Source of the DNA: an uncultured Bacteroidales bacterium
GTDB lineage: Bacteria; Bacteroidota; Bacteroidia; Bacteroidales; Paludibacteraceae
Length of the DNA: 57,496 nucleotides
Reading direction: 5' to 3'
NCBI GenBank assembly: GCA_902799705.1
Contig: CADCBP010000011.1
Coordinates: forward strand, 1-57,496
The first letter of the stretch is position 1; each line of letters begins with the position of its first letter. The position numbers and the translations under genes are program-made. The notes under the pieces are model-generated. The model saw nothing but the letters and a program-made list of their open reading frames with translations, was not told where the DNA came from and searched no databases. Shown in pieces: positions 1-57,496 of this stretch.

Positions 1-230
1 GTCGGTTTGCGGCTAAGTACGCAGGGAAACGGAAACGCGAGATGGCATCTCGCACAACAGACGACGTTAATCGGCATAGCATGCCGGAAAATAAACAAAA
101 TATTAACCCGCCGGATACTATCCGGCACTAACAGACAAAGCGTAACCTCCTGGAGGGGGAGAGAAAGTTGAAAGTTTAGAGGATTAGAGAGTTAGAGGAT
201 TAGAGAAACTGCCCGCATGGATTTTTGGAC
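1..230. repeat. Three tandem hairpin units and an octamer array in a gene-free leader
   Basis: No gene is seen in 1-375. Three short hairpins follow each other at about 38-54 (GCGAGA / TCTCGC), 73-88 (CCGGCATAGCATGCCGG-like) and 109-127 (GCCGGATACTATCCGGC). Each has a tiny loop and is followed by an A-rich tail resembling ACTAACAGACAAA. The stems differ in sequence but stay paired, which suggests the fold is what is kept. A related unit recurs at 56108-56141. Downstream, 170-210 is a degenerate 8-bp array built on AGAGGATT. The function is unknown. Confidence 0.6.
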
Positions 231-286
231 ATTTTTGTGAGCGAAGCGTATTTTATATGTTTTTTTCTATCAAAAAGATTTGCATA
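228..286 (+). repeat. Dispersed promoter-bearing repeat shared with rho
   Basis: Positions 228-254 are identical over 27 bp to the complement of 55141-55167. Positions 246-286 match the complement of 54847-54887 at 39 of 41 positions. The second block ends in the -33 element of the hppA promoter and, on the other strand, in the -33 region of the rho promoter. The two blocks overlap here but are about 250 bp apart upstream of rho. Confidence 0.8.
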
Positions 287-310
287 TATCAATTTTTTGT
301 AGTAATTTTG
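279..310 (+). promoter_or_regulatory. Bacteroidota-type promoter of hppA
   Basis: TTTG at 279-282 and TAATTTTG at 303-310 are separated by 20 bp and match the Bacteroidota -33/-7 consensus (TTTG, then TAnnTTTG). The hppA start codon lies 65 bp further on. Confidence 0.75.
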
Positions 311-375
311 CAGTCGCAATAAGTCAATTAACCGTTTAACATCAATTAATACCAATTTTCTAAACACAAAATCTT

Positions 376-2592
376 ATGAATGATTTAACAGTTTTGATGT
401 ATGTCGTCTTAGCGGCATCCGTCTTAGCGCTTGGTTTTGCGTACTTCTTCTACCGCTCGATGTTGGGCAAGGCCGAAGGTACCGACCTGATGAAGACCAT
501 CGCCTCGCATGTGCGAAAAGGTGCGATGGCTTATCTCAAACAGCAGTACAAAGTGGTGACAATCGTCTTCGTCGTGCTGGCTGCTGTCTTTGCCGTCATG
601 GCGTATTTTAACCTGCAGAACGGTATCGTATGGTTCGCCTTCCTGACCGGCGGTTTCTTCTCCGGCCTGGCTGGTTTCTTCGGTATGAAGACCGCGACCT
701 ACGCGTCCGCCCGCACCGCCAACGCAGCCCGTCAGAGTCTGAACGCAGGTCTGCAGGTAGCCTTCCGCTCGGGTGCAGTGATGGGTCTGACGGTCGTCGG
801 CCTCGCGCTGCTCGACATCGCAGGATGGTTCCTCGTACTGCAGAAGACCGGTCTGCTCGCGCTCGTTGGCGCTGACGGCGACCTGATCACCATCACCACC
901 ACCATGCTGACCTTCGGTATGGGTGCTTCGACCCAGGCGCTCTTCGCTCGCGTGGGTGGCGGTATATACACAAAAGCGGCGGACGTAGGTGCGGACCTTG
1001 TGGGTAAGACCGAATATAACATTCCCGAGGATGACCCCCGTAACCCTGCCACCATCGCCGACAACGTAGGCGATAACGTAGGCGACGTAGCCGGCATGGG
1101 TGCCGACCTCTATGAGTCGTATGCCGGTTCTATCCTCGCTACGATGGCGTTAGGTGCATCCGCCTTTGCGTTGGTGCCGGAGATGCAGCTTAAGGCGGTG
1201 CTCGCTCCGTCGCTCATCGCTGCCTGCGGCGTGCTCCTCTCCATCATCGGTATCTTCCTCGTGAAGACCAAAGAAGGGGCGGGCATGAAAGAACTGCTCC
1301 GCGCCCTGTCTATCGGTACGAACACTGCCGCCTGCCTCATCGCCGTAGTGACCTTCGGTATCTTCTACTGGCTCTTGGGCGACAACCCTGCCGCGCCGAA
1401 CCAATGGTGGCAGGTCAGCCTCTCTGTCGTTGTGGGACTCGTTGCCGGTATCATCATCGGACAATCGACCGAATACTATACCTCGCAGAGCTATAAACCG
1501 ACGCAGAAAGTGAGTGAGAGCTCGCAGACTGGTCCCGCCACCGTCATCATCAGCGGTCTGGGCCTCGGTATGCTCTCCACGGCAATCCCGGTTATCACCG
1601 TAGGTGTCGCTATCATCCTCGCTTATCTCTGCGCCAACGGTTTCGCTATCGAGTTCAGCGCACAGAACCTCTCCATGGGTCTGTACGGTATCGGCATCGC
1701 CGCTGTCGGCATGCTCTCGACCTTGGGTATCACCCTCGCTACCGACGCCTACGGACCTATCGCCGACAACGCCGGCGGTAATGCGGAGATGTCGGGTCTG
1801 CCCGCAGAGGTACGTCAGCGTACCGACGCACTCGACGCACTCGGAAACACCACCGCTGCTACGGGTAAAGGTTTTGCCATCGGTTCCGCCGCTCTCACGG
1901 CGCTCGCACTCTTGGCTTCCTACGTAGAAGAGATAAAGATTGCGCTCATCCGTACGGGCGAAGCTCTGCCGAATGGGGTAGAGGCGGCGAAAGCAACACT
2001 CGTGGACTTCATGGACGCATATAACGTCAACCTCATGAACCCCATCGTGCTCGTAGGTATCTTCATCGGCTCGATGATGGCCTTCCTCTTCTGCGGTCTG
2101 ACGATGAACGCTGTCGGACGCGCGGCACAGAAGATGGTGGAAGAAGTGCGCCGTCAGTTCCAGACCATCAAGGGTATCCTCGAAGGCAAAGCTGACCCCG
2201 ATTACGCACGCTGCGTAGCCATCTCCACCAAGGGCGCACAACATGAGATGTTGCTGCCGTCCATCCTTGCCATCATCGTTCCGATCATCACAGGTCTCGT
2301 CCTCGGCGTAGCCGGCGTAATGGGACTGCTCATCGGCGGACTGGCAACAGGCTTCGTCCTCGCTGTCTTCATGGCGAACGCCGGAGGTGCGTGGGACAAC
2401 GCGAAGAAATATGTCGAGGAAGGACACTTCGGCGGCAAGGGCAGTGACTGCCACAAGGCTACCGTAGTAGGTGACACCGTCGGCGACCCGTTCAAAGACA
2501 CGTCGGGACCGTCACTCAACATCCTCATCAAACTGATGTCGATGGTATCCATCGTTATGGCCGGACTGACTGTAACATACCACTTGTTATAA
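376..2592 (+). CDS. hppA: Membrane-bound ion-pumping pyrophosphatase
   Basis: This is a 738-residue polytopic inner-membrane protein that couples pyrophosphate hydrolysis to cation export. The substrate-binding signature GADLVGK with a following E lies near residue 205. The acidic DNVGDNVGDVAGMGADLYES segment is near 229-248, and the C-terminal DTVGDPFKDTSGPS is near 700. The GNTTAATGKG segment (about residue 490) has Ala where K+-independent enzymes have Lys, so a K+-dependent enzyme is expected. Known Bacteroides members of that clade move Na+ and H+, but the ion cannot be decided here. The length is normal. The stop codon is 1 bp before guaD, so the two are probably cotranscribed from the promoter at 279-310. 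Confidence 0.97.
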   Translation: MNDLTVLMYVVLAASVLALGFAYFFYRSMLGKAEGTDLMKTIASHVRKGAMAYLKQQYKVVTIVFVVLAAVFAVMAYFNLQNGIVWFAFLTGGFFSGLAGFFGMKTATYASARTANAARQSLNAGLQVAFRSGAVMGLTVVGLALLDIAGWFLVLQKTGLLALVGADGDLITITTTMLTFGMGASTQALFARVGGGIYTKAADVGADLVGKTEYNIPEDDPRNPATIADNVGDNVGDVAGMGADLYESYAGSILATMALGASAFALVPEMQLKAVLAPSLIAACGVLLSIIGIFLVKTKEGAGMKELLRALSIGTNTAACLIAVVTFGIFYWLLGDNPAAPNQWWQVSLSVVVGLVAGIIIGQSTEYYTSQSYKPTQKVSESSQTGPATVIISGLGLGMLSTAIPVITVGVAIILAYLCANGFAIEFSAQNLSMGLYGIGIAAVGMLSTLGITLATDAYGPIADNAGGNAEMSGLPAEVRQRTDALDALGNTTAATGKGFAIGSAALTALALLASYVEEIKIALIRTGEALPNGVEAAKATLVDFMDAYNVNLMNPIVLVGIFIGSMMAFLFCGLTMNAVGRAAQKMVEEVRRQFQTIKGILEGKADPDYARCVAISTKGAQHEMLLPSILAIIVPIITGLVLGVAGVMGLLIGGLATGFVLAVFMANAGGAWDNAKKYVEEGHFGGKGSDCHKATVVGDTVGDPFKDTSGPSLNILIKLMSMVSIVMAGLTVTYHLL

Positions 2593-2593
2593 T

Positions 2594-3868
2594 ATGAAGA
2601 TTTACAGAGGAAACATTCTTTTCACCCCCACTCCGGAACAGTTTACTGTTCTGGAGCGCGGGTATGTGATCGTAGGCGATGACGGCAACATCATCAAGAC
2701 CTGCCAGGACCTGCCGGCGGACTGCAAGGACGCGGAAGTGGTCGATTTCGGCGACCAACTGGTCATGCCGGCGATGAACGACCTCCATGTTCACGCGCCG
2801 CAGTACCGTAACCTCGGCATCGCCATGGATATGGAGTTGCTGCCGTGGCTCAACACCTATACCTTCCCCGAGGAGTCGAAGTACAAAGACCTTAAGTACG
2901 CGGAGCGCATGTACCGCCGTTTCGTGCACGACCTGTGGAAGTTAGGCACGATGCGCGCGGCGATCTTCGCTACCATCCATCCCGACGCTACTTGCCTCCT
3001 GACCGACCTGCTTCATGAAGCCGGCATGGGCGGCATGGTGGGCCTCGTAGGCATGGACCGCAACGGACCTGCTACGCTGAGCAACACCGTCGAAGAAGCA
3101 GTCGAAGGCACCAAGCGGGTCATGGAACACACCAAAGACATGCCCCTCGTCTCCGCTATCGTCACACCGCGTTTCGTACCAAGTTGTACACCGCGCATGA
3201 TGACCGCTCTCGGACTCCTTGCTAACGAATACAACCTGCCGGTTCAATCCCACCTGTCGGAGAACCAGTCGGAGATAGCGTGGGTGGCGGAACTCGAACC
3301 TGAGTCCACCTGTTATGGCGACGCCTACCGCCGCTACGGTATGTTCGGACAGACGCCGACACTCATGGCGCACTGCTGCTACACCGACGGCGAGGAGTTC
3401 GAACTGATGCGCAAGAACCATGTCTTTGCCGTCCATTGTCCGACGAGCAACTGCAACCTCGGGTCGGGTATCGCGCCTATACGCCGCTTCCTGTCGGCTG
3501 GCATCCCCGTCGCCTTGGGCTCGGATGTCTCGGGAGGTAGCGGTTTCTCTATCTTCCGCGTGATGCATTATGCGTTGCAAATGGCGAAAATGCAATGGGT
3601 GCGTACCAACCACAAAGACCAGTTCCTCAGTCTGAGCGAGGCTTTCTGGCTGGCTACCAAGTCCGGCGGTTCGTTCTTCGGCAAGGTAGGGTCCTTCGAA
3701 CCCGGCTATGCCTTCGATGCACTCGTTGTCGATGACAGTGACCTCAATTTTGATAACTATACCATCCAGCACCGCCTAGAACGCTATATCTACTTAGGCG
3801 ACGACCGCCAACTGACGCATCGTTTCTGCCAGGGGAAAGAGATATCCGCGCCGAGAATTGAAAGGTGA
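2594..3868 (+). CDS. guaD: Guanine deaminase (amidohydrolase superfamily)
   Basis: A 424-residue cytoplasmic metal-dependent hydrolase expected to convert guanine to xanthine. The zinc-binding HVH is at residues 65-67 in MNDLHVHAPQY, the family's diagnostic HxHAPQY. Further metal and substrate motifs are SHLSEN, HCCYTD, HCPTSN and LGSDVSGG. The gene starts 1 bp after hppA. The last codons run into a GAAAGGT heptamer array, and the stop TGA is the TGA inside that repeat. Other amidohydrolases such as chlorohydrolases share the fold, but the HAPQY motif favours guanine deaminase. Confidence 0.9.
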   Translation: MKIYRGNILFTPTPEQFTVLERGYVIVGDDGNIIKTCQDLPADCKDAEVVDFGDQLVMPAMNDLHVHAPQYRNLGIAMDMELLPWLNTYTFPEESKYKDLKYAERMYRRFVHDLWKLGTMRAAIFATIHPDATCLLTDLLHEAGMGGMVGLVGMDRNGPATLSNTVEEAVEGTKRVMEHTKDMPLVSAIVTPRFVPSCTPRMMTALGLLANEYNLPVQSHLSENQSEIAWVAELEPESTCYGDAYRRYGMFGQTPTLMAHCCYTDGEEFELMRKNHVFAVHCPTSNCNLGSGIAPIRRFLSAGIPVALGSDVSGGSGFSIFRVMHYALQMAKMQWVRTNHKDQFLSLSEAFWLATKSGGSFFGKVGSFEPGYAFDALVVDDSDLNFDNYTIQHRLERYIYLGDDRQLTHRFCQGKEISAPRIER

Positions 3869-3897
3869 AAGGTGAAAGGTGAAAGGTGAAAGGTGAC
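3857..3897 (+). repeat. Heptamer array GAAAGGT, about 5 units
   Basis: Five near-perfect 7-bp units fill the whole guaD-lplA gap. The array provides the guaD stop (TGA) and, in its last unit, the GTG start of lplA preceded by an AAAGG stretch that resembles a ribosome binding site. Confidence 0.9.
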
Positions 3898-4513: not shown

Positions 4514-5119
4514 AGGCAGGTAGATCACTTGTTTGGTCTCAAACCACTTGCCTTTGAACCATTGACTGCAGGGGGTGACCTCTGCTTTTTTTATGAAGGG
4601 CGCTATCTCTGCCTGCAGGTCGCCGCCCTTGAGCACCACCAAGCCATTGGGCACGGCATTGCGGTGCTTGTCCGAGATATTCTTCCGGACGAGTTTGACC
4701 AAATCGGGTAGGGGCATCACGGCACGAGAGACCACAAAATCGAATTTCTGTTTCTCTTCTTCCGCGCGTTCCTGCTTGCATACCACGTTCGTCAGACCCA
4801 GAGCTTGCGCCACTTCCGACGCCACCTTGATCTTCTTGCCGATAGAGTCTATCAGCAGAAACTGACACTCCGGAAACATAATCGCCAAGGGGATACCCGG
4901 AAAACCGCCACCCGTACCGACATCCATAATCGTGGTGCTGGGTTGGAAAGGCAGCAACTTGGCTATCGCCAGCGAGTGAAGCACATGGTGCTCATAGAGG
5001 TGGTCGATGTCCTTGCGCGAGATCACATTGATCTTCGCGTTCCAGTCCCGATACAGCGCGTCAAGCGCAGCGAATTGCTGCGCTTGATGCTCCGTGAGTC
5101 TGAAATATTGTTCTATCAT
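4508..5119 (-). CDS. rsmG: 16S rRNA (guanine527-N7)-methyltransferase RsmG
   Basis: A 203-residue SAM-dependent methyltransferase that modifies G527 of 16S rRNA. The SAM-binding glycine-rich motif DVGTGGGFPGIPLAI is at residues 66-80, followed by LLIDSIGKKIKV and the late motif DFVVSRAVMPL. The length is typical of the GidB/RsmG family. It is downstream of the yebC-family gene, separated by an octamer array. Confidence 0.95.
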   Translation of the reverse strand: MIEQYFRLTEHQAQQFAALDALYRDWNAKINVISRKDIDHLYEHHVLHSLAIAKLLPFQPSTTIMDVGTGGGFPGIPLAIMFPECQFLLIDSIGKKIKVASEVAQALGLTNVVCKQERAEEEKQKFDFVVSRAVMPLPDLVKLVRKNISDKHRNAVPNGLVVLKGGDLQAEIAPFIKKAEVTPCSQWFKGKWFETKQVIYLPL

Positions 5120-5147
5120 ATCGGTATATCGGTATATCGGTATCCCG
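5118..5147. repeat. Octamer array TATCGGTA, about 3.5 units
   Basis: The whole yebC-rsmG gap is an 8-bp tandem array. It abuts the rsmG start codon and ends 3 bp from the yebC stop. Confidence 0.85.
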
Positions 5148-5869: not shown

Positions 5870-5878
5870 ATAAACTAT

Positions 5879-5944
5879 TTATGATTTATGATTTAAACTT
5901 TCACTCTTTAAACTTTAAACTTTCACTCTTTAAACTTTCACCTT
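5879..5944. repeat. Heptamer array (TTTAAAC/TTTCACT), 63 bp
   Basis: The array fills the gap between the OmpA/DUF5723 gene and the yebC-family gene. The units TTTATGA, TTTAAAC and TTTCAC(T) keep an almost constant 7-bp spacing, with two 8-bp slips. Confidence 0.85.
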
Positions 5945-10463: not shown

Positions 10464-11933
10464 TTATCGAAGTAAGTATATTTTTTCCGTCGCGCGAGTG
10501 ACGGCGGTGTAGAGCCAGCGGAGATATTCCCGCTTCTCATGTTCCTCTAATCCGCTAATCCACTCATCCCCTAATCCGCTGTCGATATACACGTGAGCCC
10601 ATTGCCCGCCCTGCGCTTTGTGGCACGTCACGGCATAGGCGTAGCGTATCTGCAACGCATTGTAATAAGGCGAGTCATACACGGCTTTGACGAGCTCTTT
10701 CTTGTTGCGGATCTCCGGAAAATCCTCGGCGATGCGGGCAAACAGTTCCTTCTGTAGCCGATAGTTCGCTTCGGGGCTGTCTGTGGTGAGGGTGTCCAGC
10801 CATACAAGCGCCTCTATCTCCCAGTCATAATCTACTGACTTCAGTTCGGCTTTTGCAAAGTGGAATCCGTACAACTCTTGGGTGTTGGTCAGACGTTGGA
10901 TCTCTAACATATCGCCGTTGGCGAGAAACTCCAAGTCCTTGTACTCCTGCGCCCAGAAATAATTGTTCTTACTAATCATCACACGGTCGCCGTTGGACAA
11001 CTCGTCCTCTTTCCATAGAATACGTGCACGCACGCCTTGGTTATAAAGGTTGGTCATCTTATTGCTGCGCGTGATAATGAGTGTCTCTTCAGAGCCCACG
11101 GTGCGCCAACTCTGCTCGATGGTCTCTATCACTTCTTCACCGGGTACTTTGACGATGTCCACGCCATTAGGCTGGATCTGAAAGCTCTTTCCATTATGGA
11201 TGGAGGTGGGGCCGGCTTGTTCTTCGCGAATCCTCGTAGCCTCGGATAAAATACCGCTGTCGAGGGCTTGACGAGCCACTTGGGTCAACGCGTACGTACT
11301 CACGTTCAGATTGTACTGCGCCATGTAATCCGGTTCCAACGCAGGACTGCTGACGCTGCCGACAGGAGGTAACTGAGCGTCATCGCCCAAAAGAAGAAGA
11401 CTGCATTCTTTCCCATTATACACATACTTCACCAAATCGTCAAGCAGACATCCGCTACCAAAGGTAGGGTTATCCCGCACACCGGAAAGCATGGAAGCCT
11501 CATCAACAATAAAAAGCGTACGTATGTGCAGGTTGTCTGCCAGTGAGAATGCACCGACCTCATCTCCGAAAGTCGATACTCTCGACTTCTGGCGGTAAAT
11601 CTTCTTATGAATCGTATAGGCGGGGAAACCCGAATACTTGCTAAGCACCTTCGCGGCACGACCGGTAGGGGCGAGAAGTACACAAGGCTGTTTCAAACCA
11701 TTCAACGCACGTACCAACGCACTCATCACACTCGTCTTCCCCGTTCCGGCATAGCCCCGTAAAATAAATGCCTTCCGAGCCTCACGAGACACTAAAAAAC
11801 TGCCGAGAGCCTTGAAAAGACCCTCCTTCTCCTCGTTCGGCTCGAACGGCATTTCTGCCTTGATACGTCCTATGATAAAGTCTTCAAGCATCTTTCTCAT
11901 GGGTATATCGGGGTCTCGTCGGATCTTTACCAT
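10464..11933 (-). CDS. RecD-like superfamily 1 helicase (ATP-dependent)
   Basis: A 489-residue single-gene SF1 helicase of the RecD2/Dda-like type. Walker A is GYAGTGKTS (about residue 59), Walker B is FIVDEASML (about 140), motif IV-V covers LIITRSN, motif V is CHKAQGGQW (about 435), and motif VI is LYTAVTRATEKIYL at the C-terminus. Between motifs V and VI, residues about 451-463 (SGLGDEWISGLEE) are encoded by an 8-bp tandem array absent from the usual family sequence as I know it. The gene presumably acts in repair or recombination. Confidence 0.9.
   Translation of the reverse strand: MVKIRRDPDIPMRKMLEDFIIGRIKAEMPFEPNEEKEGLFKALGSFLVSREARKAFILRGYAGTGKTSVMSALVRALNGLKQPCVLLAPTGRAAKVLSKYSGFPAYTIHKKIYRQKSRVSTFGDEVGAFSLADNLHIRTLFIVDEASMLSGVRDNPTFGSGCLLDDLVKYVYNGKECSLLLLGDDAQLPPVGSVSSPALEPDYMAQYNLNVSTYALTQVARQALDSGILSEATRIREEQAGPTSIHNGKSFQIQPNGVDIVKVPGEEVIETIEQSWRTVGSEETLIITRSNKMTNLYNQGVRARILWKEDELSNGDRVMISKNNYFWAQEYKDLEFLANGDMLEIQRLTNTQELYGFHFAKAELKSVDYDWEIEALVWLDTLTTDSPEANYRLQKELFARIAEDFPEIRNKKELVKAVYDSPYYNALQIRYAYAVTCHKAQGGQWAHVYIDSGLGDEWISGLEEHEKREYLRWLYTAVTRATEKIYLLR
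10546..10582. repeat. Octamer array (CTCTAATC) inside the helicase gene
   Basis: About 4.5 units at 8-bp period: CTCTAATC, CGCTAATC, CACTCATC, CCCTAATC, then CGCTGTCG. It is read in frame as part of the helicase, just before motif VI. Confidence 0.75.
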
Positions 11934-11974
11934 AGAATGACCATAGAACTACCAGATGATGACCAGATGATGAC
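11926..11974. repeat. 11-bp array ACCATAGAATG / ACCAGATGATG
   Basis: Four units of 11 bp begin at the helicase start codon and extend upstream. The first two read ACCATAGAATG-like and the last two ACCAGATGATG. Confidence 0.8.
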
Positions 11975-20800: not shown

Positions 20801-20816
20801 TTTTCACCTTTCACCT
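20731..20816. repeat. Heptamer arrays at the 5' end of the TPR gene
   Basis: Two blocks. 20731-20751 is ACTGAAA, ATGGAAA, ATTGAAA and encodes the signal peptide core. 20785-20816 is CCTTTCA-type and holds the GTG start and the gap to PBP1A. The stretch between them (RLLGL coding) closely matches that of porT at 49245-49285. Confidence 0.85.
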
Positions 20817-29800: not shown

Positions 29801-30660
29801 AATTTTCCTTTCTTTATCGTTGCACGATGGGTCTTTGACGTGAATACTTTACCTCCTTCTCCACGTTGCAACGCATCATAAATTTTATCTATTTCTGCGA
29901 AATTATATTCGCGAAGTTCTTCATACAACCGCACAATTCCCGCTTCGCGCGTATTTTTGCCATCCAACATATCGGCGTAGCCTTGCATATATTCGGCCGT
30001 TTGAGCCATGTGCTCAATCTCCGATTTGCTGTATTGCTTCAACTGCTCGCGGATGGCATTTCTAATAATAGTGGTGTCGCTGTTCGTGCTGTCCACAACC
30101 CATTTCAGATGCCGTTTGTCGCGCAGGTAATGTTCAATATAATCCCGTGTGGTGCATAGTAAGGGACGAACTATCGGTACACCGTCAGAAGCCATCGGAT
30201 TAGCACTCTTCGGACGCATTCCAGCTAAACCTCTCAGGCCTGTACCGCGCCTTAAATTCAACAGCAATGTCTCTGCCTGGTCGTTCTGATGGTGAGCCAC
30301 CGCTACAGCTTGGCATCCGTTTGATCGGGCTACCTCGTCGAACCATGTGTAACGCAACTCCCGTGCCGCCATCTCTACGCTTATCTCATGTGTCTGCGCG
30401 TAATTTAAGGTGTCAAAATCCTTTACATATACCCGTACCTTCATCTGCTTGCAGAGCTCCCGGACAAACGCTTCGTCACGGTCACTCTCCGCCCCGCGCA
30501 AATGAAAATTGCAATGTGCTACAATACACTCATATCCTGCGCGTACTAATACATCCAACAACCCAACGCTGTCTGCACCACCGCTCACCGCTACCAACAC
30601 CGGCTTGTCTTTTTCCAACAATCCTCGCTGCCGAATATATGTGCTGACACGTCTTAACAC
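29779..30660 (-). CDS. tilS: tRNA(Ile)-lysidine synthase, short form
   Basis: A 293-residue N-type ATP pyrophosphatase. PP-loop SGGADS is at residues 27-32, with AHCNFHLRGAESDRDEAFV and AVAHHQNDQAETLLLNLRRGTGLRGLAGM. It makes lysidine at C34 of tRNA(Ile2). Bacteroidales relatives as I know them exceed 400 residues. Here the C-terminal TilS domain is missing and the frame stops inside aroE, leaving no room for it. The start is GTG inside an octamer array (AGAGGTG). It could be a true minimal enzyme or a truncation. Confidence 0.9.
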   Translation of the reverse strand: MLRRVSTYIRQRGLLEKDKPVLVAVSGGADSVGLLDVLVRAGYECIVAHCNFHLRGAESDRDEAFVRELCKQMKVRVYVKDFDTLNYAQTHEISVEMAARELRYTWFDEVARSNGCQAVAVAHHQNDQAETLLLNLRRGTGLRGLAGMRPKSANPMASDGVPIVRPLLCTTRDYIEHYLRDKRHLKWVVDSTNSDTTIIRNAIREQLKQYSKSEIEHMAQTAEYMQGYADMLDGKNTREAGIVRLYEELREYNFAEIDKIYDALQRGEGGKVFTSKTHRATIKKGKLCVTSVL

Positions 30661-30697
30661 CTCTAATCCTCTAATCCCCTAAACCTCTATACTTAAC
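30660..30697. repeat. Octamer array CCTCTAAT
   Basis: Four 8-bp units (CCTCTAAT twice, CCCCTAAA, CCTCTATA). They provide the tilS GTG start and encode the ettA end (RGLGD, then TAG). Confidence 0.85.
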
Positions 30698-33683: not shown

Positions 33684-33710
33684 TCCTTTCAACTTTCAAT
33701 TTTCAATACA
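33684..33710. repeat. Heptamer array (CTTTCAA/TTTTCAA)
   Basis: Three to four units between thyA and the PorE-like gene. The PorE-like stop TGA lies within the array on the minus strand. Confidence 0.8.
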
Positions 33711-35772: not shown

Positions 35773-35785
35773 TTTTAATTTTTAA
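35757..35785. repeat. Heptamer array (TTTTCAA/TTTTAAT)
   Basis: Four degenerate 7-bp units span the start of the PorE-like gene and the end of the DUF1015 gene. Confidence 0.7.
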
Positions 35786-37105: not shown

Positions 37106-37203
37106 GTATTTCGGAGTTATATTAGGGTTATATCGGAGTAATGTCGGAGTAATATCGGAGTAATGTCGTATCCTGCCAACCCCTATATATACTTTGTATA
37201 TAT
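37106..37203. repeat. 11-bp array TCGGAGTAATG and AT hairpin
   Basis: Five to six degenerate 11-bp units (TCGGAGTAATG) at 37106-37170. They are followed by a hairpin TATATATAC / GTATATATA at 37184-37203, which may terminate bactofilin mRNA or sit in its read-through to the DUF1015 gene. Confidence 0.8.
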
Positions 37204-45820: not shown

Positions 45821-46174
45821 ATGGAAAATAATACTTTGGAACTGTCCTTGATGGACGCGGAAGAACGCGAGTTGGTAGAGTATATCTACAATGCTATTCC
45901 TGCGGAGGACCGCGGTGCATTAACTGCGGACGATATCCTCTTTGTGCTCGACGCGATGGATGACTACCTGGAGGAGCAAGGCCTGCTCCGCGAGGATCCC
46001 GAGACAGGCGAGATGGAGTATCTGGAAGGCGAAGTGGATGAGACCGAACAACTGAACTATGTACTGCAGGCTGCAAAAGAAGACCAACGCACTGTTTCCG
46101 GCGTGCAGATCCAACTCATCCAGGATGCGGAACTCCAATTCGGAATAGACAAAGGTTATTATACGGAAGATTAA
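45821..46174 (+). CDS. Small acidic protein of unknown function
   Basis: A 117-residue, strongly acidic cytoplasmic protein (MDAEERELVEYIYNAIP, DDILFVLDAMDDYLEEQGLL, EGEVDETEQLNYVLQAAKED). It is mostly helical and has no Cys. I do not recognise a family. ATG 45821 lies 30 bp after the -7 element; a longer open frame from 45659 would cross the promoter. It is 21 bp upstream of ribF. Confidence 0.75.
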   Translation: MENNTLELSLMDAEERELVEYIYNAIPAEDRGALTADDILFVLDAMDDYLEEQGLLREDPETGEMEYLEGEVDETEQLNYVLQAAKEDQRTVSGVQIQLIQDAELQFGIDKGYYTED

Positions 46175-46198
46175 CTTCTGATTTCTGACTTCTGAATG
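46174..46198 (+). repeat. Heptamer array TTCTGAT before ribF
   Basis: Three units (TTCTGAT, TTCTGAC, TTCTGAA). The last merges with the ribF ATG. Confidence 0.85.
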
Positions 46199-48525: not shown

Positions 48526-49293
48526 TTATTCAAAATTGAAGGTCAGACATACACAATGACTTGTCATGCGCGAGATGGCGTCTGTATAAAGGAAGTCCTG
48601 CGGCGCCAGTTCCATACGGCCGGCAGTAGGGGTCAGTTGGTTGGCAAAGCCGATACGATAGGTGATCTCGGGACATAACTTGAACCATGTGAAGTACAGA
48701 TCTACACCAAAACCCACCTCGCAGAAATAATCCATGGTATTCAATAATACAGGATTTTCATGATCGCGACTCGCGTTGCAACTGATGCCGCCGCCGGCTA
48801 TCACGTACGGCCGGTAGTTGCCCTCGCGTTCTGCGGACCATTTGAGATAGAAGGGCAGATAGATGGGAATGGCGAGTACGTCGATGTCTGCAGCGTATTT
48901 GCCCGGAGTACCGATAACAGGCCTTCCGCTCTCGGACTTGTAGTGAATGGTTCGGCTCGTGAAGAGCAAACCCGGACAGAATCGCAGGTTGAGGTATTTG
49001 CACAAACGCAAGTCCGTCACAAAACCTACATGAAAGCCGGGCAGGAGTGTACTGACACGAGCATGGTAGATATCAACGTCGCCGGTTACAGGATTCGTAA
49101 TCGGCAATTCGCTGTCCGTGATCTGGAAAGTACCGAAGTTGACTCCCAACTGGAAACCGAAGTGGAAGAGCTTGTCATCCGCATACGGTCTGTTCTGCGC
49201 TACCTGTGCAGAGCATAATGAAAATTGAAAACTGAAAATTGAAAGGACCATCAGTCCCAACAATCTTCCTACTATGTTCCTATATCCTTTCAC
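48526..49293 (-). CDS. porT: PorT, type IX secretion outer-membrane protein
   Basis: A 255-residue outer-membrane barrel. Family features are ENRPYADxK-like QNRPYADDKLFHFGFQLGVN, then STLLPGFHVGFVTDLRLCKYLNLRF, YLPFYLKWSAEREGNYRPYVIAGG, and the terminal strand VCLTFNFE with C-terminal aromatic. PorT is needed for T9SS-dependent export. The signal peptide core VLSIFSFQFSLCSAQ is heptamer-encoded. The start is GTG in the array at 49293, because the internal Met at 49251 would lack the basic N-region. Confidence 0.88.
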   Translation of the reverse strand: MKGYRNIVGRLLGLMVLSIFSFQFSLCSAQVAQNRPYADDKLFHFGFQLGVNFGTFQITDSELPITNPVTGDVDIYHARVSTLLPGFHVGFVTDLRLCKYLNLRFCPGLLFTSRTIHYKSESGRPVIGTPGKYAADIDVLAIPIYLPFYLKWSAEREGNYRPYVIAGGGISCNASRDHENPVLLNTMDYFCEVGFGVDLYFTWFKLCPEITYRIGFANQLTPTAGRMELAPQDFLYTDAISRMTSHCVCLTFNFE

Positions 49294-49322
49294 CTTTCAC
49301 CTTTCACCTTTCACCTTTCAAC
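49217..49322. repeat. Heptamer arrays at the 5' end of porT
   Basis: 49217-49244 (AATGAAA, ATTGAAA, ACTGAAA, ATTGAAA) encodes the signal peptide core. 49285-49322 (CTTTCAC, five units) fills the gap to the TonB-type receptor gene and holds the porT start. The segment between matches the TPR gene's 5' end. Confidence 0.9.
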
Positions 49323-51899
49323 TTAGAATCCGCTATCCGTGTTGCTGTTTCCACTATCGTCGAAGTCCTCATTGCCGCCACCGAAGTCTCCGTCCGGACG
49401 CTGTCTGCGGCGACCTTGTTGGTTTCCGAAGTTATAGGTCACAGTCAGGCTGATACTACGACTGTGCCATCTATTCTCACTGTATTGCCAGAATCCGTCA
49501 CCCCAGGTCGTGTTTCTGCGCGCACGGCTGTCGAGGATATCGCGCACGTTAAGCGCCAGCGCCAACTGTTTGTTGAGGAAGGTGTGACGTAAACCGATAT
49601 CGAGCGAGTAACTGTGGCTTGTCGTACCTTGTGCTACGACGCGCGGCGAGCGGTAAGCGGCAGTGATTTGTCCGCTGAAGTTCTTCGTAAAGAGGAACTG
49701 CGCGTTGACGCGTACCGAACCCGCCAGGATGTTCTGACCTGGTAGATGAACAGGTATCGTGTCGCCTAAGTGGTACATCTCCTGATCTACTGCCGCGATG
49801 TTATTCCAATAGAAGTTGGCACTTGTCGTCAATTGCAGCAACTCGCCGAACAGGCGGTTCTTGGCGACCAATTCGACACCTAACTCCTGACGCGTGGCGA
49901 CATTGAGATAGGTGTTCTTCATCGTCTGTCCGTCTTTGTCCATGTACTTGACGTTCTGCACGGCTCCCTCGCGGTATCTCCAGAAGATGCCTGCGGAGAG
50001 CGTGTGACGTTCCCATGTCTTGAGATAGTTCAACTCGAGGTTGTTGGAGTAGGCGGGTAACAGATTGACATTACCATAACTGATGTTTGTCGAGTCGCTG
50101 AAATCCATACGCGGGTTGATTTGGTGTCCCCACGGACGGTTCACGCGGCGCGTGTAGTTCAACTGTAACTCGTTCCCATGCCCGAAGTCATAACCGATAT
50201 ACGCACTCGGGAAGAGTTGGAAATAGCTGGTGTCTTTCTTGTTTTCCATGCCCGCGTACGAGTCTTTGACATTACCATCCTTGTCTTTGTAGAACGACTC
50301 TAAATGGCGCATGTAATACTCGCCGCGCAGGCCTACTTGCAGCGATAACTTGTCCCAGAAACGGTTACCGTACGTCACGTAGAAGGCATGGTTCTGAGTC
50401 AGGCCGCTTGCGTCGGAGAAATAGTCGTACATCTCGTTAATATGCGAGCCGTCGGCATTATTGTTATGCGCGTCCGCCCAAGTGTTGCTCCAAGAGCGGG
50501 AGTAGTCATAACCGGCTTCCAAGCGGCTCTGAGGTGTCGGTTTCCATTCATAGTCCGCTTTCACCTCGATGTTCTGACCTTTGCTGAGGTTCGTCTGGTC
50601 CTGGTACGTGGTGTCGAAGAGGTCGGTTCCCAAACGGTGGTCAGCCTGCTGGTAATCCGTCAACTGGTTCCAGCCGAAGTTATTGTATGTACCGCTTACG
50701 TATAGTTTATGTTCGTCCCTCTCGAAGGTGTAGTCGAGAGTAGCCAGTCCGCCGGGGTGATAACCGTTGGAGTGCTGGTCGCGCCAGTAGTCACGCAGGA
50801 TGTTGCCGGACTTGTCGGTCAGGGTGTACAGACGATGGTTCGTACCGTAGTTATTGAATACGCGCGGCTCGCTGACCATGCCGAAACCTGATACACCGAT
50901 GGTATGACCTTCCGCCACGTGGAAGTTCAGCCCTGCACGGCCGAAGATACCGCCGCCTCGATGGGACTGATGACCCTCTTGTTTCAAATGGCTGTCGATG
51001 AGCGTGCTGTCCAGGACAGCTGTACCCGTACCGGTCAGGTTATAACGGTCTGTGATACTACCGCCGTTGCTTGTGTAATAGCGGTAACCGACGTTGAAAT
51101 AACCGTCAACAGGACCGGCGTTGAAGTTAATGCTGAAACTCAGGTTTCCTCCGGGTGGCACGTTCCACGGCGCAGCGAGGGAGTAGTTGATACCGGCCTG
51201 CAAGGAGCCGTAGAAGCCCGCAGCGCGGTCTTTCTTCATCACGAGGTTGATGATACCCGATGTGCCTTCCGGACTGAATTTGGCGGAAGGGTTGGTGATG
51301 AGTTCGATCTTCTCGATGGTGCCGGCGGGCATCTGTTGCAGCACTTGACCGCGGTTCTCCGAGGTCAGTCCTGCCGGCTTGCCGTTGATCCATATCTCGA
51401 CATCTTCGCTGTTACGCAGACTGATGTTGCCTTCCTGGTCCACTTCCACCGACGGGATGTTCTCTAACACATCCGACACCGATGCACCGGCGGATGCGAT
51501 GTTCTGGTCAACGGTGAACACTTTCTTGTCCAACTCGAAGCGCATCGAGCTGCCTTGTCCGACAACCTCTACGTCTTGAAGCACTTTACTGTCTTCTTTC
51601 AGCGCAAAGCGTACAGTCACGGGCTTGCCGGCAACCGTCACTTCGCGGCGTTGCTCGCTGTAACCCATGAATGATGCTACCAGCGTATAACTGCCGTCTG
51701 CCAGGTTGAGGGTGAACTCGCCTTTCTCGTCCGTCACGGTACCGCTGACCGGGGTAGGGTCGGTACCTTTGAGCACACTGACATTGGCAAAGTCAATGGC
51801 TTGCTTTGTGCCGGCGTCTATTACTTTTCCGGTCACCTTAGCCGCATAAGTGCTGCTTACCAACACTATGAGACTGAGAAGTACTACTAATCGTTTCAT
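49323..51899 (-). CDS. TonB-dependent-receptor-like outer-membrane protein with CarboxypepD_reg domain
   Basis: An 858-residue protein with a signal peptide (VSSTYAA). A carboxypeptidase-regulatory-like domain (GKVIDAGTKQAIDFANVSVLKG, residues 24-105) is followed by a plug domain (SVSDVLENIPSVEVDQEGNISLRNSEDVEIWINGKPAG) and a large barrel. The C-terminal tail is Gly/Asn/Asp-rich (GRRRQRPDGDFGGGNEDF). It belongs to the outer membrane beta-barrel group that lacks a SusD partner, and none is seen here. The substrate is unknown. A 160-bp telomere-like heptamer array precedes its start. Confidence 0.9.
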   Translation of the reverse strand: MKRLVVLLSLIVLVSSTYAAKVTGKVIDAGTKQAIDFANVSVLKGTDPTPVSGTVTDEKGEFTLNLADGSYTLVASFMGYSEQRREVTVAGKPVTVRFALKEDSKVLQDVEVVGQGSSMRFELDKKVFTVDQNIASAGASVSDVLENIPSVEVDQEGNISLRNSEDVEIWINGKPAGLTSENRGQVLQQMPAGTIEKIELITNPSAKFSPEGTSGIINLVMKKDRAAGFYGSLQAGINYSLAAPWNVPPGGNLSFSINFNAGPVDGYFNVGYRYYTSNGGSITDRYNLTGTGTAVLDSTLIDSHLKQEGHQSHRGGGIFGRAGLNFHVAEGHTIGVSGFGMVSEPRVFNNYGTNHRLYTLTDKSGNILRDYWRDQHSNGYHPGGLATLDYTFERDEHKLYVSGTYNNFGWNQLTDYQQADHRLGTDLFDTTYQDQTNLSKGQNIEVKADYEWKPTPQSRLEAGYDYSRSWSNTWADAHNNNADGSHINEMYDYFSDASGLTQNHAFYVTYGNRFWDKLSLQVGLRGEYYMRHLESFYKDKDGNVKDSYAGMENKKDTSYFQLFPSAYIGYDFGHGNELQLNYTRRVNRPWGHQINPRMDFSDSTNISYGNVNLLPAYSNNLELNYLKTWERHTLSAGIFWRYREGAVQNVKYMDKDGQTMKNTYLNVATRQELGVELVAKNRLFGELLQLTTSANFYWNNIAAVDQEMYHLGDTIPVHLPGQNILAGSVRVNAQFLFTKNFSGQITAAYRSPRVVAQGTTSHSYSLDIGLRHTFLNKQLALALNVRDILDSRARRNTTWGDGFWQYSENRWHSRSISLTVTYNFGNQQGRRRQRPDGDFGGGNEDFDDSGNSNTDSGF

Positions 51900-51906: not shown

Positions 51907-52067
51907 TAAACTAATACCTAAATCCTAACCCCTAAATTCTAAATCCTAAACCCTAAACCCTAAACCCTAAACCCTAAATCCTAAATCCTAAACCCTAAAT
52001 CCTAAATCCTAAATCTTAAACCCTAAATCCTAAACCCTAAATCCTAAACCCTAAACCCTAAACCCCT
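51907..52067. repeat. Telomere-like heptamer array CCCTAAA / CCTAAAT, about 22 units
   Basis: The array is a mix of CCCTAAA and TCCTAAA units. Four perfect CCCTAAA units occur at 51951-51978. It lies between aroQ and the TonB-type receptor gene, so on the sense strand of both it reads GGGTTTA and could form a G-quadruplex in the receptor's mRNA leader. Its right end encodes the last residues and stop of aroQ. Confidence 0.95.
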
Positions 52068-52503
52068 GAATCCATTTCACGGCTTCAACATACCCCTCTG
52101 TTCCATGACCTATTATACTATGCGCGCACACGTCCGTGAGCAGACTTGTCTGCCGGAACGGCTCGCGCTTGGTGATATCGCTTATATGCACTTCCACCAC
52201 CGGTACTTCGCTTTCCTCCACAGCATCGCGCAGCGCCACGCTCGTATGACTGTACCCGCCGGCATTCAGCACGATACCGGAGTATCCTCCATTCGCCTCT
52301 TGTATCCAGTCAATCAGGTCTCCTTCGTGGTTCGACTGCTTATAGATCAAATGGACGTCCGGCAGAGTCCGTTGGATTTCCAACAAAATCTGTGCCATCG
52401 TCTTTGAGCCGTATATCTCCGGCTTTCTCAAACCCAGACGATTCAAATTCGGACCATTCAATATTAAAATTGAAAATTGAAAATTGAAAGTTGAAAGGTT
52501 CAT
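52051..52503 (-). CDS. aroQ: Type II 3-dehydroquinate dehydratase
   Basis: A 150-residue enzyme of the shikimate pathway. The core motifs are ILILNGPNLNRLGLRKPEIYG (with the Asn and catalytic Tyr region), NHEGDLIDWIQEA, LNAGGYSHTSVALRDA, VEVHISDITKREPFR and SIIGHGTEGY. Relatives start directly at the ILNGPNLN strand, while here ten extra residues (MNLSTFNFQFS) are encoded by heptamers and are the only route to an ATG. The end GFRV and stop lie in the telomere-like array. It overlaps the four-helix gene by ATGA. Confidence 0.95.
   Translation of the reverse strand: MNLSTFNFQFSILILNGPNLNRLGLRKPEIYGSKTMAQILLEIQRTLPDVHLIYKQSNHEGDLIDWIQEANGGYSGIVLNAGGYSHTSVALRDAVEESEVPVVEVHISDITKREPFRQTSLLTDVCAHSIIGHGTEGYVEAVKWIQGFRV
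52461..52502. repeat. Heptamer array (ATTGAAA) encoding the AroQ N-terminus
   Basis: About four ATTGAAA/GTTGAAA units cover the aroQ start and its first ten codons. Confidence 0.85.
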
Positions 52504-52841
52504 GGCTTTTTCTTGAGTTTTTTTACAATCGAAACCAAAATCGCGATAATTTCTTTTAAATCTTCGTCTAATGATTTATATTCTTGTTCGGTTATAAGTT
52601 CAGAACGAAAAAGAACTTCCAACCAGTACTGGGTTTCATCTGCTTCTTTTAAGGCAATATTCATTTTGGATAGATAGTCAGGATCAGTTTGGGCATTTTT
52701 GCTCTCTCGTACATTTGCACCAATGCTTGTACCACTTCGAAGGATTTGTTTACTCAAAACAAATTCTTTTTTATCCGTGCACAAGTACTTGTAAAAGTTT
52801 ACAATACGAACGGCAAAGTCCAAAGTTTTTTGACGTATCAT
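52500..52841 (-). CDS. Four-helix bundle protein (S23/TIGR02436 family)
   Basis: A 113-residue helical protein. Family features are LDFAVRIVNFYKYL, LSKQILRSGTSIGANVRES, DYLSKMNIALKEADETQYWLEVLF, and ELDEDLKEI-like SLDEDLKEIIAILVSIVKKL. Relatives are found in 23S rRNA insertions and as the Avd protein of diversity-generating retroelements; no reverse transcriptase is present here. It is AT-rich against its neighbours, flanked by heptamer arrays, and inserted between aroQ and rho. ATG 52841 is chosen. Confidence 0.88.
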   Translation of the reverse strand: MIRQKTLDFAVRIVNFYKYLCTDKKEFVLSKQILRSGTSIGANVRESKNAQTDPDYLSKMNIALKEADETQYWLEVLFRSELITEQEYKSLDEDLKEIIAILVSIVKKLKKKP

Positions 52842-52845
52842 GCTT

Positions 52846-52912
52846 CCTTTCACCTTTCACTTTTCACTTTTCACTTTTCACCTTTCACCTTTCACCTTTC
52901 ACCTTTCACCTT

Positions 52913-52916
<4 letters not shown>
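52846..52916. repeat. Heptamer array CTTTCAC/TTTTCAC, about 10 units
   Basis: A 70-bp array that fills the whole gap between rho and the four-helix gene. The last unit supplies the rho stop TGA on the minus strand. Confidence 0.95.
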
Positions 52917-54757
<1,841 letters not shown>

Positions 54758-56822: not shown

Positions 56823-56853
56823 CAAAAGTAGTACAAAAAAACGAGACCGCCAA
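56823..56853 (-). promoter_or_regulatory. Promoter of the holin-DUF5675 genes, overlapping a terminator
   Basis: On the minus strand TTG at 56853-56851 and TACTTTTG at 56830-56823, with 20 bp between. The -33 element lies in the loop of the terminator hairpin just upstream. Confidence 0.65.
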
Positions 56854-56867
56854 GGAAAGCAGTCTCG
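56842..56867 (-). terminator. Intrinsic terminator after the 56890 gene
   Basis: CGAGACCGC (56842-56850) pairs with GCAGTCTCG (56859-56867), with one mismatch. Seven T residues follow on the minus strand. Confidence 0.75.
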
Positions 56868-56889
56868 CAAGTCTAAAAAATGGTCGTTT

Positions 56890-57117
56890 TCAATTTTTGT
56901 CAATTGGATAGCCTACATATTCGGCAAATTCATGCGCGATGTAAGGCGACATCCATCCTTTGCGTTTTATCAGACCCGCCCATCCAGTTTTGTGCCTTTT
57001 CTTTTTACCGAAACAAATGAGCAGAGTATTAAACGCGTCTTTGGGGTTTATGTAGTTCATACGCACTTGCAGGCGTTTAATCATATCTGCAAGGAACACT
57101 CTATTTTCTTTCCTCAT
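56890..57117 (-). CDS. Small basic protein of unknown function
   Basis: A 75-residue Lys-rich protein (KKKRHKTGWAGLIKRKGW, then AHEFAEYVGYPIDKN). I do not recognise it. It overlaps the upstream gene as ATGA and is followed by a terminator, so the two make a small operon. Confidence 0.65.
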   Translation of the reverse strand: MRKENRVFLADMIKRLQVRMNYINPKDAFNTLLICFGKKKRHKTGWAGLIKRKGWMSPYIAHEFAEYVGYPIDKN

Positions 57118-57461
57118 AAGCCGAAAGTAGTTTTGAGATTGATGATGTCGCTCGCATTGTAGGTCGCTTTGTTCTTGTCAGCGTAGTTGCGCCTTACCTG
57201 CTCGGAGGCGATGAAGCATCTTGCCTCATAGAGAGCGGTTTGCAGTTCGAGCCAATCGACTTTAATGTCAGCGATGTGCAACTTCATTTTCGCCTGTTCG
57301 GCACAAGCGACGATGAATCGCCAATGTCCGTCCGGCGGTACGATCCCTTTTGAGTTGCGCTTGGCGAAGAAGCCGTTTTTACGTTTTTGGATGTGGAATC
57401 CGAAGCCACGTCCTACAGAGCCTGTCAGGCTTTCACATTGTTTTGTTAAGATGATTTTCAT
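57114..57461 (-). CDS. Hypothetical protein, probably of a mobile or phage-like cassette
   Basis: A 115-residue protein with a conserved-looking start (LTGSVGRGFGFHIQKRKNGFFAKRNSKGIVPPDGHWRFIVACAEQ) and end (ASDIINLKTTFGL). Similar sequences occur, as I recall, in short phage-like gene groups of gut Bacteroidales. The function is unknown. It starts 35 bp from the window edge, so any genes upstream of it are not visible. Confidence 0.65.
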   Translation of the reverse strand: MKIILTKQCESLTGSVGRGFGFHIQKRKNGFFAKRNSKGIVPPDGHWRFIVACAEQAKMKLHIADIKVDWLELQTALYEARCFIASEQVRRNYADKNKATYNASDIINLKTTFGL

Positions 57462-57496
57462 AATTGATAGAATTTAATTCTGAAGTAGTAAATGAG

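What the first reader, a model, noticed from the sequence alone, without database searches (positions are those of the whole stretch)
1..57496. A genome-wide-looking system of arrays that keep their period (7, 8 or 11 bp) but not their sequence
More than twenty degenerate tandem arrays occur in 57 kb. The unit differs widely between sites (GAAAGGT, CCCTAAA, TTCTGAT, GACAAAG, GCTGATG, TAATTTT, TATCGGTA, CCTCTAAT, TTATTTTGTCC, TCGGAGTAATG), yet the period is nearly always 7, sometimes 8 or 11. This is unlike a dispersed repeat family, where sequence is conserved. It suggests a local process that creates short tandem copies with a fixed step. Heptanucleotide STRR repeats of cyanobacteria are the closest known parallel, but those have conserved units. 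All three periods are not multiples of 3, so a unit change within a gene shifts the frame.
Basis: partly seen in the sequence, partly recalled or inferred. Interest (0 to 1): 0.88.

Follow-up and report, generated by a model that had tools for sequence, protein, structure and literature searches.

The report
Seven-base stutter repeats at gene junctions
One group of rumen bacteria carries many short DNA stutters whose step is seven (sometimes eight) letters but whose spelling changes from place to place and between close relatives, mainly in the small gaps between neighbouring genes, which suggests a mutation process with a built-in step length.

Summary
In 452 kb of this rumen Paludibacteraceae genome and 1.48 Mb from 80 related loci, tandem arrays peak at periods 7, 8 and 11. 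In co-directional spacers periods 4-6, 12 and 13 are at chance and 9 and 10 barely above it. The 7-bp arrays occur in 128 of 761 co-directional spacers of 5-199 nt but 1 of 85 of 200-399 nt, often running over the upstream stop codon. In 54 array-bearing junction comparisons between genomes 91-96% alike, 20 share a unit, 11 have units one base apart, 13 differ more, 10 have an array on one side only. Period-7 arrays also lie inside conserved genes (89 against 4 after codon shuffling), but not in samples from other families. I conclude that a lineage-specific mutational process with an intrinsic ~7-bp step makes and remodels arrays where they are tolerated. The 11-bp arrays look like a separate class. 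Some arrays are inverted arms of small elements with a 23S-IVS-type protein gene, one in this window between rho and aroQ, but these do not explain most arrays. Heptamer excess and junction heptamers are known elsewhere.

The parts
3859..3896 (+). 7-bp array (GGTGAAA) over the stop codon of 2594-3868 and up to the next gene
5118..5143 (-). 8-bp array (ATACCGAT) in a 30-nt co-directional spacer
5877..5938 (-). mixed 7/15/22-bp array (GTGAAAG, TTTAAAG, ATAAATC) in a 73-nt spacer upstream of 5150-5869, a YebC/TACO1-type gene
11928..11974 (-). 11-bp arrays in a 293-nt spacer (separate class)
20786..20817 (-). 7-bp array (GGTGAAA/AGTGAAA) directly after a stop codon; one unit longer than in relatives G150 and G151
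26947..26964 (-). 7-bp array AAATTGA; the same junction holds 8-bp arrays in L002, L044 and L050 and a 1-nt gene overlap in L003, L004 and L064
27886..27905 (-). 7-bp array AGTGAAA at a junction
29010..29070 (-). 11-bp array AATAAGGACAA directly downstream of aroE; at this junction 23 of 45 genomes have an array, with 18 units of period 7, 8 or 11
29654..29685 (-). degenerate 7-bp array inside aroE (shikimate dehydrogenase), coding a variable segment; other species have 7- or 8-bp units there
30660..30689 (-). 8-bp array GGATTAGA over a stop codon; 19 of 36 genomes have an array here, with 17 units
33687..33707 (-). 7-bp array ATTGAAA at a junction
35763..35788 (-). 7-bp array AAATTAA over a stop codon and a 9-nt spacer
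36346..36383 (-). 7-bp array inside a DUF1015 gene (35782-37083)
36761..36791 (-). 7-bp array (ATCAGCA type) inside the same DUF1015 gene
37133..37168 (-). 11-bp array (CATTACTCCGA) in a 135-nt spacer
46174..46195 (+). 7-bp array (TTCTGAC) filling a 21-nt spacer
49286..49324 (-). 7-bp array GGTGAAA after a stop codon
51917..52065 (-). longest array, 21 copies of GGTTTAG/GATTTAG, from the end of aroQ (dehydroquinase II) towards the next gene
52466..52496 (-). right arm of the IVS-type element: (TTTCAAY)n, inverted relative to the left arm; it lies in the first codons of the annotated aroQ ORF
52500..52853 (-). 23S_rRNA_IVP gene (PF05635, E 3.7e-28), 117 aa
52846..52918 (-). left arm of the IVS-type element: (GGTGAAA/AGTGAAA), about 10 copies, starting in the last codons of rho
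52913..54757 (-). rho (termination factor), upstream neighbour of the IVS-type element
52051..52503 (-). aroQ (dehydroquinase class II), downstream neighbour

Best explanation
In this rumen Paludibacteraceae lineage a mutational process with an intrinsic step of 7 bp (less often 8) keeps making, lengthening, shortening and replacing short tandem arrays. The unit comes from whatever sequence is at the spot and is partly shared within a genome. Arrays persist where extra DNA is tolerated: the stop-to-start gaps inside operons, where an overlap or tiny gap becomes an array-filled spacer, and, with the frame kept, variable segments of proteins. The likely molecular step is replication slippage in which the nascent strand re-pairs about 7-8 bases away, the length of duplex held by a polymerase, followed by substitution and further slippage; this step is inferred, not shown. 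Function at the junctions is probably minor (spacing between stop and start). Shown: the period spectrum, the location, unit differences between relatives, coding arrays, restriction to this lineage in the samples taken. Inferred: slippage as mechanism, local origin of the unit, and the enzyme.
For: Sharp period set after normalising by copy number: two-copy runs in 396 co-directional spacers of the de-duplicated loci lag 7 148 (expected 3.4), lag 8 35 (0.2), lag 11 13 (0), lags 4, 5, 6 24, 11, 15 (19.2, 13.6, 12.4), lags 9, 10, 12, 13 3, 3, 0, 0; own genome 183 spacers lag 7 53 (1.6), lag 8 23 (0.2), lag 11 7 (0.2). The same step deep inside coding sequence, 90 nt or more from gene ends: lag 7 89 against 4 in one codon shuffle, lag 8 10 against 0, lag 6 16 against 16, lag 9 4 against 1, lag 12 2 against 0; selection for frame would favour multiples of 3. 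In at least five of nine such genes checked the array lies inside a matched domain (SecA, Tex, GDP-mannose dehydratase, a class I tRNA synthetase, a TonB receptor). Restriction: deep-coding lag 7 per 100 kb is 6.51 own, 7.20 near loci, 2.07 G150/G151, 9.34 same-genus stretches, 0 in 26 loci under 70% identity (304 kb), 0 phylum, 1.11 other genera of the family (2 in 180 kb), 0 order. Whole-unit indels between related loci: size 7 13 of 13 in tandem context, size 8 5 of 8, size 11 1 of 2, against sizes 4, 5, 6, 9 4 of 14, 0 of 5, 2 of 8, 0 of 4 (some events are counted in two pairs). AroE segment: of 32 genomes 8 have a 7-bp and 3 an 8-bp array, six units.
Against: A plain mutational model predicts similar density in all non-coding DNA, but 7-bp arrays are in 128 of 761 co-directional spacers of 5-199 nt, 1 of 85 of 200-399 nt, 2 of 74 divergent and 4 of 60 convergent spacers. 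Local templating is only weakly supported: array-free orthologous junctions hold one copy of the unit in 8.7% against 5.5% for other junctions, and 75 of 140 arrays go the right way. Units are shared within a genome more than chance (0.095 against 0.021; maximum of 500 permutations 0.059), which purely local birth does not predict. MutS and RecJ match in 31 of 31 genomes and XseA in 29 of 31, so no missing repair gene was found. Array density varies within the lineage: 3.8 per 100 kb in G150/G151 and 6.6 in other same-genus stretches against 10.4 here. No read-level data.
Confidence: 0.62

Rival explanations
1. Junction arrays are selected translation-control elements: a spacer carrying the stop codon and close to the next start codon, whose length tunes reinitiation, as proposed for TAACTGA repeats of Beggiatoaceae.
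For: Arrays are concentrated in short co-directional spacers; arrays at the stop codon carry TGA in sense 47 times and antisense once out of 82.
Against: The strand bias fades away from the stop codon (13 sense, 7 antisense of 38 arrays more than 20 nt away) and is absent in 8-bp units. Folding energy around the start and over the spacer does not differ significantly from array-free spacers (124 against 383 spacers, P 0.26 and 0.11). In 27 of 79 array-bearing comparisons one relative has no array at all. Arrays also occur deep in genes.
Confidence: 0.15
2. The arrays are arms, or left-over arms, of small palindromic mobile elements that carry a 23S-IVS-type protein gene (PF05635); the element moves and its arms are heptamer arrays.
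For: Inverted complementarity of flanks in 19 of 29 IVP genes against 10 of 241 small ORFs (P 4e-15; three of the 241 were themselves IVP genes); 7/8-bp arrays in either 150-nt flank 19 of 29 against 43 of 238, in both flanks 8 of 29 against 5 of 238; the element in this window.
Against: Only 9 of 162 array-bearing spacers have an inverted partner (3.3 expected). IVP count does not correlate with array density over 50 genomes (rho 0.125, P 0.39). 10 of 29 IVP genes have no 7/8-bp array in either flank.
Confidence: 0.12
3. Ordinary neutral simple-sequence slippage with no special step; heptamers are simply the commonest long unit in many bacteria.
For: Heptamer over-representation in many bacteria is in print (passages of PMC4692102). 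31 of 54 closer comparisons show the same unit or one base apart, as gradual array evolution would.
Against: Stretches from other Bacteroidales families and other Bacteroidota sampled the same way show no such peak: 0.3 and 1.2 period-7 clusters per 100 kb (order, phylum; the latter includes three stretches of G228, two of them chosen for TAACTGA arrays) against 3.8-17.5 in this lineage and 2.6 in other genera of the family.
Confidence: 0.1

Closest known systems
TAACTGA heptamer repeats of marine Beggiatoaceae, some Cyanobacteria and five Bacteroidetes (MacGregor 2015, PMC4679880; abstract and sections 8, 10, 23 read)
   Same: 7-bp direct repeats, intergenic, in the Beggiatoaceae genome mostly close to a downstream start codon in forward orientation; two sets reported in Paludibacter propionicigenes.
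   Different: There one unit is favoured and single-base variants are rarely repeated (section 8); here the period is fixed and the unit is free. TAACTGA x3 occurs 0 times in this genome.
[quoted passage not shown] the survey itself is not held)
   Same: Period 7 in excess; a link to the DNA segment held by the polymerase was proposed; intergenic; variable between close relatives.
   Different: The paper whose passages I read deals with conserved G-rich units (GGGAATC, GGGGAYT). Here many units, also period 8, strong junction bias, and arrays in coding sequence.
23S rRNA intervening sequences (IVS) with the S23p/IVP protein (PMC4990558, passages read)
   Same: Small element with an S23p/IVP ORF (PF05635 here) and terminal inverted repeats.
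   Different: Here the gene lies in a protein operon, between rho and aroQ, and the inverted termini are tandem arrays whose sequence differs between loci.
BrickBuilt MITE of Porphyromonas gingivalis (PMC4596501, abstract and outline read)
   Same: Tandem repeat inside an intergenic inverted-repeat element in the Bacteroidales.
   Different: One 23-bp unit with leader and tail; here many units and no shared flanks in the 21 GGTGAAA sites compared.
Cyanobacterial STRR heptanucleotide repeats (recalled; Calothrix heptanucleotides are mentioned in PMC4692102)
   Same: Period 7.
   Different: Conserved units (recalled).

Membership tests
TAACTGA junction repeats | unit TAACTGA | tested here: not met
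   0 matches of three tandem copies in G000
[quoted passage not shown]
   7-bp arrays concentrate in short co-directional spacers; distances to the next called start, some of them over 100 nt
Heptameric SSR excess | period 7 over-represented against shuffles | tested here: met
Heptameric SSR excess | other long units (4-11 nt) normally represented, as reported for Xanthomonas and Nostoc in PMC4692102 | tested here: not met
   periods 8 and 11 also in excess
Dispersed repeat or MITE family | copies share sequence beyond the array | tested here: not met
   21 GGTGAAA sites in the sampled part of this genome: ungapped identity of 30-nt flanks mean 0.30 upstream (max 0.50) and 0.32 downstream (max 0.57)
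IVS element (window 52466-52918) | IVP/S23p gene | tested here: met
   PF05635 E 3.7e-28
IVS element (window 52466-52918) | terminal inverted repeats | tested here: met
   inverted flank score 46, cross-locus 99th percentile 34
IVS element (window 52466-52918) | located in 23S rRNA | tested here: not met
   between rho and aroQ
IVS element (window 52466-52918) | excised from RNA by RNase III | not testable with these tools
   no RNA data

The most novel reading that the evidence does not exclude
The lineage has a dedicated enzymatic writer, for example a polymerase variant or an activity linked to the IVS-type protein, that stutters locally and lays down several 7-nt (or 8-nt) copies in one event at operon junctions, giving each genome its own dialect of units and the inverted arms of the IVS-type elements.
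Probability: 0.13. Interest if true: 0.88.

Novelty: new variant of a known kind. Interest (0 to 1): 0.64.

Why it matters
Why heptamers are common among long simple repeats in bacteria has, in what I read, only a speculative answer (polymerase contact length). Here is a lineage in which the step is separated from the sequence, is visible in coding and non-coding DNA, and in which the units differ between genomes 91-96% alike, so the birth event and its enzyme can be sought by comparing sister species. It also suggests that operon spacers and protein loops can be filled by one mutational process, and shows IVS-type protein genes in ordinary operons, often flanked by such arrays.

Tried and rejected
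Stop-codon selection as the cause of the unit sequence: TGA is enriched in 7-bp units, but the strand bias is strong only in arrays lying on the stop codon, so position explains most of it; 8-bp units show none. Unstructured-leader selection: no significant difference in folding energy. Missing mismatch or exonuclease gene: MutS 31 of 31 (30 over the cut-off), RecJ 31 of 31 (30 over), XseA 29 of 31 genomes; XseA of the genus matches in two pieces, not followed. Spread of arrays together with flanks: flanks do not match. IVS-type elements as the source of all arrays: no correlation and few inverted partners. Copying of the ancestral local sequence: weak support only. Frame selection for non-3n periods: contradicted by coding arrays.

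Mended on checking: my first count of unit turnover (15 same, 13 different, 51 one-sided of 79 array-bearing comparisons) used a strict cut-off and exact units; the looser recount (22 same, 12 one base apart, 12 further apart, 6 of different period, 27 one-sided) is less extreme. The distant group held four near loci; one search gives it without them.

Limits: gene calls come from my own simple caller. 'Genus' sets mix genomes told to be of the same genus with loci at 70% or more identity to one protein, whose kinship the tools do not tell. The 80 loci lie round one gene; 11 near-identical ones were dropped before and in the pooled sets. The 23 genome pairs are not independent. Some genomes reached by handle share coordinates with others, so are the same assemblies. 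Of 31 IVP loci (best match of each of 30 genomes plus the window) two (L227, L229) were dropped because my script found no open frame of 80 codons; by eye some of the 29 are one insertion in two species. Shuffles were single, five.
Full report
WHAT THE WINDOW IS. The window is contig C11 (57,496 bases) of a 2.33-Mb draft genome. Its nearest named relatives are rumen-type Bacteroidales/Paludibacteraceae metagenome-assembled genomes (RUG14329 and SRR11784285_bin.47; 97% identity of the protein coded at 33703-35772). Rfam finds a Bacteroidales small SRP RNA at 12109-12216.

THE OBSERVATION. Tandem Repeats Finder lists 61 rows at score 30. Merging overlapping rows by hand gives 34 places of period 7 (23), 8 (5) or 11 (6), listed against genes: 21 at co-directional junctions, 1 in a divergent spacer, 11 inside gene calls, 1 other. 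The lag spectrum is sharp in the window, in 452 kb of the own genome (lag 7 58, lag 8 22, lag 11 25; one Markov shuffle 0, 0, 1) and in 1.48 Mb from 80 loci of related genomes (175, 51 and 52 clusters against 1, 1 and 4; lags 6, 9, 10, 12, 13 give 11, 16, 7, 9, 3 against 2, 1, 1, 2, 1). Lags 14, 15, 16 and 21 are also raised (60, 26, 21, 30); many are multiples or sums of 7 and 8, but I did not account for each. With the threshold set to two full copies, 396 co-directional spacers of a de-duplicated set give lag 7 148 (expected 3.4), lag 8 35 (0.2), lag 11 13 (0), while lags 4-6 sit at expectation and 9, 10, 12, 13 give 3, 3, 0, 0.

WHERE THE ARRAYS ARE. Per 100 kb, period-7 clusters in the related loci are 217 in co-directional spacers, 18 in divergent, 16 in convergent and 5.5 in coding sequence; in the own genome 60, 14, 15 and 5.2; period 11 is as common in divergent (55; own 43) as in co-directional spacers (44; own 31). 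By spacer length, co-directional spacers with a 7-bp array number 30 of 266 (5-29 nt), 38 of 216 (30-59), 32 of 141 (60-99), 28 of 138 (100-199) and 1 of 85 (200-399); divergent 2 of 74; convergent 4 of 60. Period-11 arrays are in 11 of the 85 long co-directional spacers and 9 of the 761 shorter ones. So 7/8 and 11 behave as two classes. In 63 of 103 period-7 arrays in short co-directional spacers of the related loci, and 14 of 25 in the own genome, the array runs over the upstream stop codon. TGA occurs in 60 of 106 seven-base units, 22.8 expected, but in 7 of 36 eight-base units, 7.2 expected. At the stop codon the strand split is 47 to 1 of 82, away from it 13 to 7 of 38, so most of the bias comes from the stop codon being inside the array.

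PERIOD KEPT, SEQUENCE NOT. I followed 11 orthologous junctions through up to 54 genomes. At g30671/g29779, 19 of 36 genomes have an array, with 17 units of period 7 or 8; at g29063/g27920, 23 of 45 with 18 units of period 7, 8 or 11; two junctions with median gene overlaps of 22 and 13 nt have none in 46 and 27. For 23 pairs of genomes 86-96% alike, 197 junction comparisons gave 118 without an array. Of the 79 others, the strict count is 15 sharing a unit, 13 with different units and 51 with an array on one side; a looser count (weaker arrays accepted, units compared in any rotation) is 22 same, 12 one base apart, 12 further apart, 6 of different period and 27 one-sided; in the 16 closest pairs (91-96%) it is 20, 11, 10, 3 and 10 of 54. 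So arrays both drift by single bases and are replaced. Example: L033 and L063 (94.9% identical) carry AATTACG repeats and AATTGAT repeats at one junction between nearly identical flanks. Indels between related loci at size 7 are all in tandem context (13 of 13), size 8 5 of 8, size 11 1 of 2; sizes 4, 5, 6, 9: 4 of 14, 0 of 5, 2 of 8, 0 of 4 (a few events are seen in two pairs). Units are not random within a genome: the chance that two arrays of one genome share a unit is 0.095 (mean of 33 genomes), against 0.021 after shuffling genome labels (maximum of 500: 0.059); in L030, 8 of 15 arrays are AATAATG. The 21 GGTGAAA sites in the sampled part of this genome share no flanking sequence.

CODING SEQUENCE. 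At least 90 nt from gene ends, lag 7 gives 89 arrays against 4 after one shuffle of codons within genes, lag 8 10 against 0, lag 6 16 against 16, lag 9 4 against 1, lag 12 2 against 0. Nine genes that I picked from the 25 longest arrays listed all have Pfam matches, and in at least five the array lies inside a matched domain: GDP-mannose dehydratase in L018, a class I tRNA synthetase in L121, a TonB receptor in L093, Tex in L005, SecA in L081. Of 38 genes with longer arrays, 17 had fewer than two orthologs in hand; in 2 of the other 21 the array is mostly an insertion relative to the orthologs, in 19 the orthologs have residues there, often of other sequence. In AroE, where the window's degenerate array at 29654-29685 lies, a search that requires an open frame found the segment in 32 genomes: 8 have a 7-bp and 3 an 8-bp array there, six units; the window's own does not reach that threshold. 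Coding arrays of period 7 cannot come from selection for frame, so they point to an intrinsic step. The coding excess is confined to this lineage in my samples: per 100 kb 6.51 own, 7.20 near loci, 2.07 G150/G151, 9.34 same-genus stretches, 0 in 26 loci under 70% identity (304 kb), 0 in the phylum stretches, 1.11 in other genera of the family (2 in 180 kb), 0 in 210 kb of other families of the order. The all-sequence gradient is similar: 10.4 own, 15.5 near, 17.5 G134, 6.6 other same-genus stretches, 3.8 G150/G151, 3.9 distant loci, 2.6 family, 0.3 order, 1.2 phylum.

IVS-TYPE ELEMENTS. The ORF at 52500-52853 is a 23S_rRNA_IVP protein (PF05635, E 3.7e-28) between rho and aroQ. Its flanks are GGTGAAA and TTTCAAY arrays in inverted orientation; the right arm lies in the start of the annotated aroQ ORF, while relative G151 has no IVP gene at this site but another short spacer. 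The family matches in 32 of 41 genus genomes (30 over the cut-off) and 47 of 50 genomes behind my loci (44 over). For 29 IVP genes (two of 31 dropped), upstream and downstream flanks are complementary beyond the cross-locus 95th percentile in 19, against 10 of 241 other small ORFs (P 4e-15; three of those 241 are IVP genes themselves). 7/8-bp arrays lie in either flank of 19 of 29 against 43 of 238 and in both of 8 of 29 against 5 of 238. Against a general role: 9 of 162 array spacers have an inverted partner (3.3 expected), and IVP number does not correlate with array density (rho 0.125, P 0.39, n 50). A PDDEXK_3 gene in L091 has similar inverted flanks.

MECHANISM. Best supported is a lineage-specific mutational process with a 7-8 bp step, probably replication slippage. 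The idea that heptamers reflect the DNA segment held by the polymerase is in print, as cited in PMC4692102 (passages); the 2007 source is not held. I found no gene loss to blame. Not explained: why long and divergent spacers are nearly free of 7-bp arrays. One reading is that short operon spacers exist because arrays made them, since at several junctions most array-free orthologs are gene overlaps. Another is selection against arrays near promoters. A third is a birth process tied to junctions. Selection for an unstructured leader is not supported.

NOVELTY. Known: heptamer excess, junction heptamers, IVS proteins, tandem-repeat MITEs. My ten searches of the open-licence PMC library (mostly seen as listings) showed no description of period-fixed, unit-free arrays, of their turnover, of coding heptamer arrays in one lineage, or of IVS-type protein genes with heptamer-array arms in protein operons. 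Most subscription papers are not in that library.

Noticed in passing
window 52466-52918: IVS-type element between rho and aroQ: PF05635 gene with inverted heptamer-array arms; the right arm lies in the start of the annotated aroQ ORF.
   Followed up: yes
L091:7288-7728: PDDEXK_3 (PF13366) gene with inverted complementary flanks, possibly a second gene type carried by the same kind of element.
   Followed up: partly
L029, junctions g33703/g32876 and g26956/g25364: A palindrome made of inverted GGCTATT/AGCTAAC arrays occurs at two junctions of one genome, as if copied.
   Followed up: no
window 48470-48521; L033, L064, L201, L204, L210: A recurrent GACCGCTTCGCT-like motif in junctions and in arms of IVP elements, with longer periods.
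   Followed up: no
L086:14006, L087:17713, L090:16421: The same 11-bp unit (GGCATCTCGGA or its complement) at three places of this genome, in long or divergent spacers; looks like a separate dispersed class.
   Followed up: no
AroE and other protein segments of L001, L002, L022, L029, L033: Besides heptamer arrays, the same protein segments hold stretches reading like PPSPEGK / SPQPSPEGKG, which look like translated palindromic repeats (resemblance to Rickettsia palindromic elements is recalled, not tested).
   Followed up: no
XseA of the genus: Exonuclease VII large subunit matches the family in two pieces in 18 of the 18 genus members with a match (own genome included), and in G169 and G170.
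   Followed up: no
window 6485-6800: 96-bp tandem repeats, probably coding repeats (guess: calcium-binding, thrombospondin type 3-like); not tested.
   Followed up: no
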